Assembly (NCBI GenBank): GCA_947179485.1
Contig: OX359250.1
Coordinates: forward strand, 32,064,654 to 32,128,653
DNA: 64,000 nt
Source: Allacma fusca
Taxonomy: Eukaryota; Arthropoda; Collembola; Symphypleona; Sminthuridae
Direction of reading: 5' to 3'
Under the pieces are notes generated by a model. It had not been told where the DNA came from, searched no databases, and saw only the letters and a program-made list of their open reading frames with translations. Positions 42,701 to 45,700 of the stretch are shown here, piece by piece (the stretch's first letter is position 1; each line of letters starts with the position of its first letter). A program made the translations under genes and the position numbers.

Positions 42701-45700
42701 CATTTCCTTCAAAGTACAATTCATTTCATTCCCTACAAAATAGGAATTCAGTTCAATCCCTACAAAATATGAATTCATTTCATTCCCTACAAAATATGAA
42801 ATCATATAATAACCCACAAAACATTTCATATCATAACCCACAAAACATTTCATATCATAACCCACAAAACATTTCATATCATAACCCATAAAACATTTCA
42901 TTTCAAATTCACCAACGAAAAATGTTTCCCTTAAATCTAGTTCCATTCCCCAATCAATCAATTTACAATCCAAATAAATCCCTTTCCCCGTCACCTTTCT
43001 GTCACAACATCCCCTCCGACAGAACACATCCGAATTAACAACTTGGCAACATTACAGCTCACATCCTCCTAATCACCAGTACCCAACATACCATAAATTC
43101 CAACATCTATCAAGAATCCCCAACTCCATCAAACCCTCCACAACTCAAATCTCTAGCATACTAACACTCCGGTAATTATTCATCCCCAACATAGCCCATG
43201 TAATGATCCAGAAGAATCATCCCATCTAACTCATCAAGACAGGTTCCATATCAGCTAATAATACAAAGGAGAATCACAAAGTTCCGTACATAGATCCATG
43301 AGTCCAGCTGTAATAAACAAGGAAAGAAATCCCATGTCAGTCTGTTATCTCCGAACCAGAAAAATTACCTTGGAAGACTCCTTCCAAATATTTATATTTT
43401 TTTTTAGCTTTAGCATATAATTCATATCTGCTCTGACACAGACACAGACACACTCCTGGGAATAGATATATCCTCACCTTCATTCTCGTCATCGTCTATT
43501 ATTGTATCCTCTGTCTCAGTCTCTGTTTCAGAAATTTGGTCTGGATTGGTAATAATTTCTCCAGAAGCCCATTCTATCACTATTGGTTTCATATCTGGCT
43601 CTTCCTCATTGTCCACTTCTTCTACTGTACATATCTCACTTTCGCAGTCACTCATATTAATTACTAGTAACTATAGATTTTTTATGCAAAACCTTTAAAC
43701 TTTTTCCTCTCCAATCCCAACACACTACTACTGTACTACTCTCCCCTGTGTGTCAGCATGGATTATTATAATCAACAATCATTCATATTCCAGCGCCACT
43801 TTCCCTCTCTTTCAATCAATGAGAAGCCCGACGTTCCTGGATTTAGTCCGTCACTGGGACCTTCGCAGCCCTCCCTTTATTAAACACACTCTCCCTACCT
43901 TCCTATGTACATACATATACACTTCATACACACACACACACACACACAGCCCATACACAAGGTCTGCCTTCAGCCTTCACTCCACACACACACACACACA
44001 CACATACACTTGACACATACATACTATAAGCTTACGCTCCTTCCCCGCTCTTTAAATCCCTACACATACAGGACCCTCCACATATAACATCAATCCCTCC
44101 TGCAAATCCTCCACAGTTCTTCCAGCGGACTTGAAGTTCTGTTAATAGAGAAAGAGGCCTTGGAAAAATCCAAAGGCCTCGGAACATTTGAAGGTTTTTT
44201 TTATCATGTGCTAAAAATTATAGTGTCCAAGTATCCGGGGTAAGGATGTTTGTCAATAGCTCCAGATGTTCTGTGTGATGTTCTGTGTGGATGTTTTGTA
44301 TGGATGTTCTGTATGGATGTTATATATGGATGTTCTGTTGGAAGTTCTGTATGTAGCCCCAGAAGATGTTATGTACGGATCGGGGAGAGTATCATTTAGA
44401 GCAATATGGCTCTGAGAAAGTGTGTGTAATTGTAGTGTGAGTCCTATGATGGAACACTATTTCTGCGGAAGTGGGATATACAGTGGATGGATGTGTAGGA
44501 GATTGAGAGACAGAGGGTTATTGGGAGAGCGTTCTGTGTTAATGGAGGAAACATAATAGGGAAAGTATTGGAGTTTTAAAGAGTTTTTGTTTTTGGAATT
44601 TTGGAGAGGATGGGATTTTAGGGAGAGGATGTTTCTTTGGGGGATACTAGGGTAGGGAGAGTTGACTGTAGATCCGGAACATGTGTATTATAGGACCAGA
44701 AGATCAGAGGGCCGCTCGGGTTTTCGTTAGGTTCATAATATACTCATTGAGTGTTCGGGTGTGTGTGTATATCATATTGGACTGATTGCGAGAGAGAGAG
44801 GCTTTTTCATTCGGTGCTCTTTATATAGAGGAGATCCTGGGCTTTTATAGAGTGGAGTTGGTATGTGGCTAGTGTGTGAGAGAGACTGGGAGTGAGGAAC
44901 AGATTAGAAGCTTTCTTGCAAGTATTGCTCTCTCCTTTACAGATGGCTCAAGGGGGCTTTATGGGATATTTTCGGCTTGGGTGTATTTTTATGGGATTTT
45001 TACGATGGTTGTGGTTCAGTTCCTATGAACAATGAATCTTTGGGGAATTAACCTTGGGATTTTTAATATTTCTACTTATTGTCTTTAAAAAGTCAGGAGG
45101 GTGAAGTGGCAGGTTGAATTAAGGCCGTGTCGGGAGTTCCTATTAATTGAGGTATTTTTGCCGGGACATTAAATGAGAATAGTAGTGTGGGGGAAATGAT
45201 GCCTTCAGAATTTAGGGCTATTGAGTGAGTTTGTTAGGTTGACGGGATGAGGACGTTTATTGGATTTATTGGAAAGGTGATGGAGTTTATGGGGTTGTGG
45301 GTGGTGGCATGAGGGAAGGTTTTGATTTAATTCTGAATTATATTTGTTCCTTTGGGAAGGAGCTAATTATTGATGACGGATTTTGTTAGAGAGAAAAAAT
45401 CTTGCTTTGGAATTCCTCGGTTATTCGTTCGTATTTAATTATGATGTATCCTTCAAAAGATTTTTTTCCAATCTTGATAAAGTTATACAGAATGAGTAAT
45501 AATATAGAATTTTGGGGAGAAATTAGGGAAGAAATAAGATGCCTGTATTTTTGGGGGATACAAAAACAGCTGACAGTTTTAAGGTACGTAGGTTTTCTTT
45601 TTGTGGTAAGATAAATACAGTTGACTGGTATCTATTTTTACGCAAATAGAACTCAAGCGGTTCTCAAAATTGGGATGAGAAGTTCCGCTATTAACTTTCT

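What the first reader, a model, noticed from the sequence alone, without database searches (positions are those of the whole stretch)
43478..43655. Hidden acidic first exon inside the AP-2 gene, in perfect splice phase with the DNA-binding exon
Seen: an ATG with an in-frame upstream stop, 59 residues of which 23 are Asp/Glu, and a strong GAAG|GTGAGG donor in phase 1, exactly the phase the 42573 acceptor requires. Known: AP-2 proteins normally carry a Pro/aromatic PY activation domain, and vertebrate AP-2 genes use alternative first exons, though as far as I recall these change only the extreme N terminus. Inference: an internal promoter makes an AP-2 form with the same DNA-binding and dimer domain but an acidic activation domain, skipping the three upstream exons. 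Such an isoform would bind the same sites with different co-activators.
Basis: partly seen in the sequence, partly recalled or inferred. Interest (0 to 1): 0.75.

Follow-up and report, generated by a model that had tools for sequence, protein, structure and literature searches.

The report
Possible acidic first exon in AP-2
A short, strikingly acidic open reading frame with a strong splice site sits inside the AP-2 transcription-factor gene of an arthropod-like animal and could start a different form of the protein, but only RNA data or related species could show that it is used.

Summary
On the minus strand, 43655-43478 is an ATG frame with an upstream in-frame TAG: 59 residues, 23 Asp/Glu, ending in GAAG|GTGAGG in phase 1 (donor in the top 3 of 3792 GT sites). 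Joined to the downstream AP-2 exons it reads through as a 303-aa protein with intact DNA-binding and dimerisation domains. It matches only itself in its genome, is the most acidic of 816 stop-free stretches of at least 59 aa in 194 kb, and none of 126 comparable simulated frames came near its acidity. Chance with uniform composition explains it poorly. The interpretation stays unproven. Phase agreement is worth 1 in 3. Synonymous codon choice is worse than in all 30 presumed exon pieces. The 42573 acceptor scores low and at least 8 intervening AG sites score higher, each leading to an early stop. No CpG island or strict initiator was seen upstream. The one database match, archaeal and acidic, was not tested further, and no animal genome collection was available. 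Best reading: a young alternative first exon giving AP-2 an acidic, disordered N terminus (about 0.4). Main rival: a non-functional, purine-rich intron frame (about 0.36).

The parts
43478..43655 (-). Acidic ATG frame, candidate alternative first coding exon (59 aa + 1 base), donor GAAG|GTGAGG in phase 1
   Evidence: matches only itself in own genome
43478..43540 (-). Rival cassette exon, 63 nt, phase 1 to phase 1, acceptor CAATCCAG (score 5.1), in frame between 54534 and 42573
   Evidence: 447-aa frame open from the PY exon
42378..42573 (-). AP-2 exon with the start of the DNA-binding domain, acceptor GGTTTAG|GTATG, phase 1 in, phase 2 out
   Evidence: PF03299 E 1.1e-20
54534..54591 (-). Probable canonical 58-nt AP-2 exon just upstream ([19 protein letters not shown]), phase 0 in, phase 1 out
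   Evidence: Top of 9 candidates of the required phases listed for the intron; inferred from splice sites and phase only
58271..58513 (-). AP-2 upstream exon (GHQLAAQ...ISMDDGQ), phase 0/0
   Evidence: no Pfam match
58950..59195 (-). AP-2 activation-domain exon with the [12 protein letters not shown] stretch, phase 0/0
   Evidence: no Pfam match
35783..35901 (-). AP-2 exon ([18 protein letters not shown]...LVE)
   Evidence: PF03299
30858..31002 (-). AP-2 exon ([11 protein letters not shown]...LLAT), phase-1 acceptor
30504..30774 (-). AP-2 last coding exon ([10 protein letters not shown]...KLDKDKK, stop)
43258..43307 (-). Strongest competing acceptor between 43420 and 42573 (score 9.1): joining 43478 here gives a 76-aa acidic protein that stops

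Best explanation
The frame is a young, lineage-restricted alternative first coding exon of the AP-2 gene. Transcription would start inside the intron just upstream of 43.65 kb. The strong donor after 43478 would be joined to the phase-1 acceptor at 42573, and the protein would be a 303-aa AP-2 in which the PY activation region is replaced by a 59-residue, net -22, probably disordered acidic segment on unchanged DNA-binding and dimerisation domains. Such a form would bind the same sites and dimerise with the long form. It would act either as an acidic activator through its Ile/Val/Trp-containing acidic stretch ([12 protein letters not shown]) or as a competitor lacking the PY domain. Shown: frame, donor, phase, composition, no second copy found. 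Inferred: promoter, splicing, translation, function, age.
For: In-frame product through all four downstream AP-2 exons. Donor score 11.4; 3 of 3792 GT sites on the strand score as high, itself included. First of 97 frames by both acidity and donor, first of 816 by acidity, and none of 126 simulated frames above 0.13 Asp/Glu. Amino-acid plus codon score is typical of the presumed exons: 14 of 30 such 59-codon pieces score the same or lower, and 14 of 1048 open 59-codon segments from presumed non-coding stretches and the 13 sampled loci (which may hold exons) reach it. No AATAAA or ATTAAA between 43655 and 42574, so a transcript starting here would be expected to run on into AP-2. No other copy found. 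ATG has A at -3. AlphaFold2 on the single sequence gives no fold, mean pLDDT 63.4, pTM 0.14; compatible with disorder, but a single-sequence model is weak evidence.
Against: Synonymous codon choice scores -7.5 bits, below all 30 presumed exon pieces (lowest -6.2), and 961 of 1048 segments of the comparison set score as high or higher; with a model from AP-2 exons alone (420 codons) the full score is also negative, -4.6. The 42573 acceptor scores 1.2, and 1276 of 3745 AG sites score as high or higher; at least 8 intervening AG sites outscore it (one search lists those above 2 with introns of 129 nt or more). CpG observed/expected is 0.44-0.53 over 43.6-44.2 kb and no strict YCAKTY initiator lies at 43640-44300. 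Part of the acidity is a short quasi-repeat (12-base unit, 1.9 copies, 43509-43531). No Pfam match. No conservation evidence.
Confidence: 0.4

Rival explanations
1. Non-functional intron sequence: a purine-rich, locally biased stretch that happens to be open in one frame and to hold a strong donor-like site.
Against: Rank 1 of 97 and 1 of 816 in real genomic sequence, none of 126 near it in simulation; amino-acid composition typical of the presumed exons.
Confidence: 0.36
2. Internal cassette exon 43540-43478 of the ordinary AP-2 transcript: 21 residues ([21 protein letters not shown]) inserted between the PY region and the DNA-binding domain; the ATG would be irrelevant.
For: Acceptor at 43540 scores 5.1, better than that of 42573; 63 nt, phase 1 to phase 1, whole frame open to the AP-2 stop, 447 aa from the PY exon. 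Needs no new promoter.
Against: Leaves the acidic, open 5' two thirds of the frame unexplained (13 of its first 40 residues are Asp/Glu). Rests on the inferred 58-nt exon upstream.
Confidence: 0.1
3. A separate small nested gene: 43655-43478 joined to the strong acceptor at 43307, giving a 76-aa acidic protein, or the unspliced 77-aa frame.
For: Acceptor 43307 scores 9.1; both frames end in a stop.
Against: No AATAAA or ATTAAA downstream within the intron; no second copy, no Pfam match, no convincing PDB match, none in viral contigs.
Confidence: 0.09
4. A poison or non-coding first exon: the donor is used, but splicing to one of the stronger intervening acceptors makes short, stop-containing transcripts that tune AP-2 level.
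For: The 8 listed intervening acceptors that outscore 42573 all lead to stops, giving 66-91 aa.
Against: Explains neither the length nor the acidity of the frame.
Confidence: 0.05

Closest known systems
Vertebrate TFAP2A alternative first exons 1a-1d (PMC3219183, passages seen)
   Same: Alternative first exons give AP-2 forms with different N termini and different activity; exon 1d encodes about 60 residues
   Different: By the passages seen they differ in the extreme N-terminal sequence and belong to the 5' part of the gene (exons 1 to 3); the candidate here would drop the PY exon and the two exons after it and begin right before the DNA-binding exon
AP-2B splice form of human AP-2alpha (PMC7140685, passage seen)
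   Same: An AP-2 isoform that would modulate the full-length factor
   Different: AP-2B lacks part of the DNA-binding domain and the dimerisation domain; here these stay and the activation domain changes
Internal-promoter N-terminal variants such as p63 TA/DeltaN (recalled, not read here)
   Same: An intronic promoter replaces the activation domain on a shared DNA-binding core
   Different: Well evidenced by transcripts; here sequence only

Membership tests
AP-2 transcription factor gene (PF03299) | AP-2 DNA-binding and dimerisation domain in the downstream exons | tested here: met
   Four matches over the cut-off, all in this gene; no other place in the genome was found (5 of 5 candidates scored)
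Alternative first exon of AP-2 | Start codon, open frame and donor in the phase of the next exon | tested here: met
Alternative first exon of AP-2 | Own promoter or transcription start | tested here: inconclusive
   No CpG island, no strict initiator; CATAAA at 43686 only; no 5'-end data
Alternative first exon of AP-2 | Spliced transcript 43478-42573 | not testable with these tools
   No RNA data held
Alternative first exon of AP-2 | Codon usage showing coding selection | tested here: inconclusive
   Amino-acid level gene-like, synonymous level not
Alternative first exon of AP-2 | Conservation in related animals | not testable with these tools
   No animal genome collection; scans of viral contigs gave no relative of the frame or of the AP-2 exon
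Acidic activation domain | Acidic segment with interspersed bulky hydrophobics, disordered | tested here: inconclusive
   Composition and single-sequence model without fold; activity untested

The most novel reading that the evidence does not exclude
An intronic promoter in an arthropod-like AP-2 gene makes a 303-aa factor in which the PY activation region is wholly exchanged for a newly evolved acidic one, so that one gene sends two chemically different activation domains to the same DNA sites.
Probability: 0.27. Interest if true: 0.65.

Novelty: new variant of a known kind. Interest (0 to 1): 0.42.

Why it matters
AP-2 factors are developmental regulators (recalled), and the alternative first exons reported for TFAP2A change the N terminus but not the DNA-binding core (passages). 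A full swap of activation-domain type within one gene would be a clean natural test of how much of a factor's output is set by its activation domain, and an example of a coding first exon born inside an intron.

Tried and rejected
Transposon or repeat origin: the 77-aa frame and 701 bases of DNA around it each match only themselves in the own genome (the DNA search skips simple repeats and very common words). Known domain: none in Pfam up to E 10; PDB's single match, E 1.2 to ferruginol synthase, is taken as chance. Prokaryote collection: 52 stretches matched a pattern and one locus passed (L022, archaeal MAG, 38% over residues 1-57, E 1e-7 relative to the candidate stretches only); I take it as an acidic-composition match but did not test it. 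Viral contigs: none for the frame (17 pattern matches) or for the AP-2 exon (45 pattern matches). Canonical first exon: none by motif in the window's minus strand or in 40 kb upstream, nor with a 24-aa query in the whole genome (no positive control). Papers: six searches of an open-licence library (listings only, cut to 10 of 45, 3 of 4 and 8 of 11) showed no title or abstract start on an arthropod AP-2 isoform of this kind; I saw passages of PMC3219183 and PMC7140685 only. AlphaFold2 gave no fold.

Weak points of method: one search used exon ends off by one and lost frame; one search repeats it with corrected ends. The coding training set (2150 codons; 2325) rests on plus-strand long open frames that I judged supervillin-like by eye, plus AP-2 exons; only a below-cut-off gelsolin repeat in one of five pieces supports that identity, and PDB gave nothing for that piece. 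The 1048 comparison segments overlap and may include unrecognised exons. Markov simulation understates local compositional swings.

Full report
What is there. The window lies in a 392.7-Mb unnamed assembly (C9:32064654-32128653). The only AP-2 gene found in it runs on the window's minus strand. The exons I can place are 59195-58950 (PY activation region), 58513-58271, a 58-nt exon 54591-54534, 42573-42378, 35901-35783, 31002-30858 and 30774-30504 with the stop. Joined, they are open throughout, 426 codons from the PY exon on. The 58-nt exon is inferred from splice scores and phase (0 in, 1 out): it tops the 9 candidates listed for that intron. No first exon upstream of the PY exon was found. 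A COX1 locus on C5 reads, by eye, as ND2-COX1-COX2 in that order, which by my recollection fits an arthropod; the species was not identified.

The finding. At 43655-43478, between the 58-nt exon and the DNA-binding exon, the minus strand has ATG, 59 codons and one further base, then GTGAGG; a TAG stands in frame as the sixth codon upstream. The peptide has 23 Asp/Glu, one Lys/Arg and net charge -22. The acidity is not only a repeat: the first 40 residues hold 13 Asp/Glu, and the last 19, which include a GAGACA-like quasi-repeat, hold 10. Joined to 42573 the frame runs through the AP-2 exons to the normal stop, 303 aa.

Is it more than chance? Comparisons were made on 194 kb of this genome (the window plus 13 loci of 10 kb), both strands. 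Of 97 ATG-to-donor frames with at least 40 codons and donor score at least 6, it is first by acidity and first by donor. Of 816 stop-free stretches of at least 59 aa it has the most acidic 59-residue piece, 24 against 18 for the next. In 264.5 Mb of order-4 Markov sequence, 126 frames of at least 59 codons ended in a phase-1 donor of at least 11.3, about 0.006 per 12-kb intron, and the most acidic reached 0.13. Markov sequence understates local compositional swings, so these odds are optimistic. Phase agreement itself is worth a factor of three, and the intron holds 7 other phase-1 ATG-to-donor frames of at least 10 codons.

Is it coding? With codon and amino-acid usage together it scores like the presumed exons: 14 of 30 such 59-codon pieces score the same or less, and 14 of 1048 open 59-codon segments from presumed non-coding sequence and the sampled loci reach its score. 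But the part that does not depend on amino-acid composition points the other way. Synonymous choice scores -7.5 bits, below all 30 pieces, and 961 of the 1048 segments score as high or higher. A model from AP-2 exons alone gives -4.6 overall and -5.7 synonymous. The synonymous signal is weak in this genome (the 30 pieces run from -6.2 to 4.9), so this is not a strong test, but it gives no support for long-standing coding selection. If the exon is real, it is probably young.

Splicing and promoter. The donor is excellent (3 of 3792 on the strand at or above it, itself included). The 42573 acceptor is poor by a generic matrix (1.2), though two other AP-2 acceptors are also low (1.9 and 3.1), so the matrix is a blunt tool. 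At least 8 AG sites between donor and 42573 score higher; the 8 listed all lead to stops giving 66-91 aa. No AATAAA or ATTAAA lies between 43655 and 42574, so a transcript begun here would be expected to run into AP-2 rather than end as a nested gene. Upstream there is no CpG island, no strict initiator at 43640-44300, and a CATAAA at 43686.

Relatives. The frame matches only itself in the genome, has no Pfam match, no convincing PDB match, none in viral contigs, and one acidic archaeal match in the prokaryote collection that I take as compositional, untested. No collection of animal genomes was on hand, so conservation, the decisive sequence test, is open.

How it would work. If used, the exon replaces the PY region by an acidic, probably disordered segment (single-sequence AlphaFold2 mean pLDDT 63.4, pTM 0.14) on an intact DNA-binding and dimerisation core. 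Whether that makes an activator with other partners or a competitor cannot be told from sequence. Vertebrate precedent for N-terminal AP-2 variants with different activity exists (PMC3219183, passages), including exon 1d with about 60 residues. A cassette exon 43540-43478 in the normal transcript fits the phases as well and needs no promoter; it is the most economical functional rival.

Verdict. Observation confirmed and unusual; interpretation plausible, at about 0.4, and directly testable with ordinary RNA data.

Noticed in passing
window 1-26000, plus strand: Neighbouring long open frames look supervillin/gelsolin-like by eye; of five pieces scanned one (23228-23776) has a below-cut-off Gelsolin repeat match (E 0.0011) and no PDB match.
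   Followed up: partly
window 42627-42905: Tandem arrays of 24- and 27-base units just upstream of the AP-2 DNA-binding exon.
   Followed up: no
L019-L021 and C8:22971501-22972841 of the own genome: Besides a copy on contig C91, four near-full-length COX1 matches lie in large contigs (C12 twice, C5, C8) with TGA as the only stops, as if open in mitochondrial code: very recent nuclear copies of mitochondrial DNA, or assembly errors (only L020 was read with table 5).
   Followed up: partly
window 42573: The AP-2 DNA-binding exon has a weak acceptor without a clear pyrimidine tract (score 1.2), which may hint at regulated inclusion.
   Followed up: no
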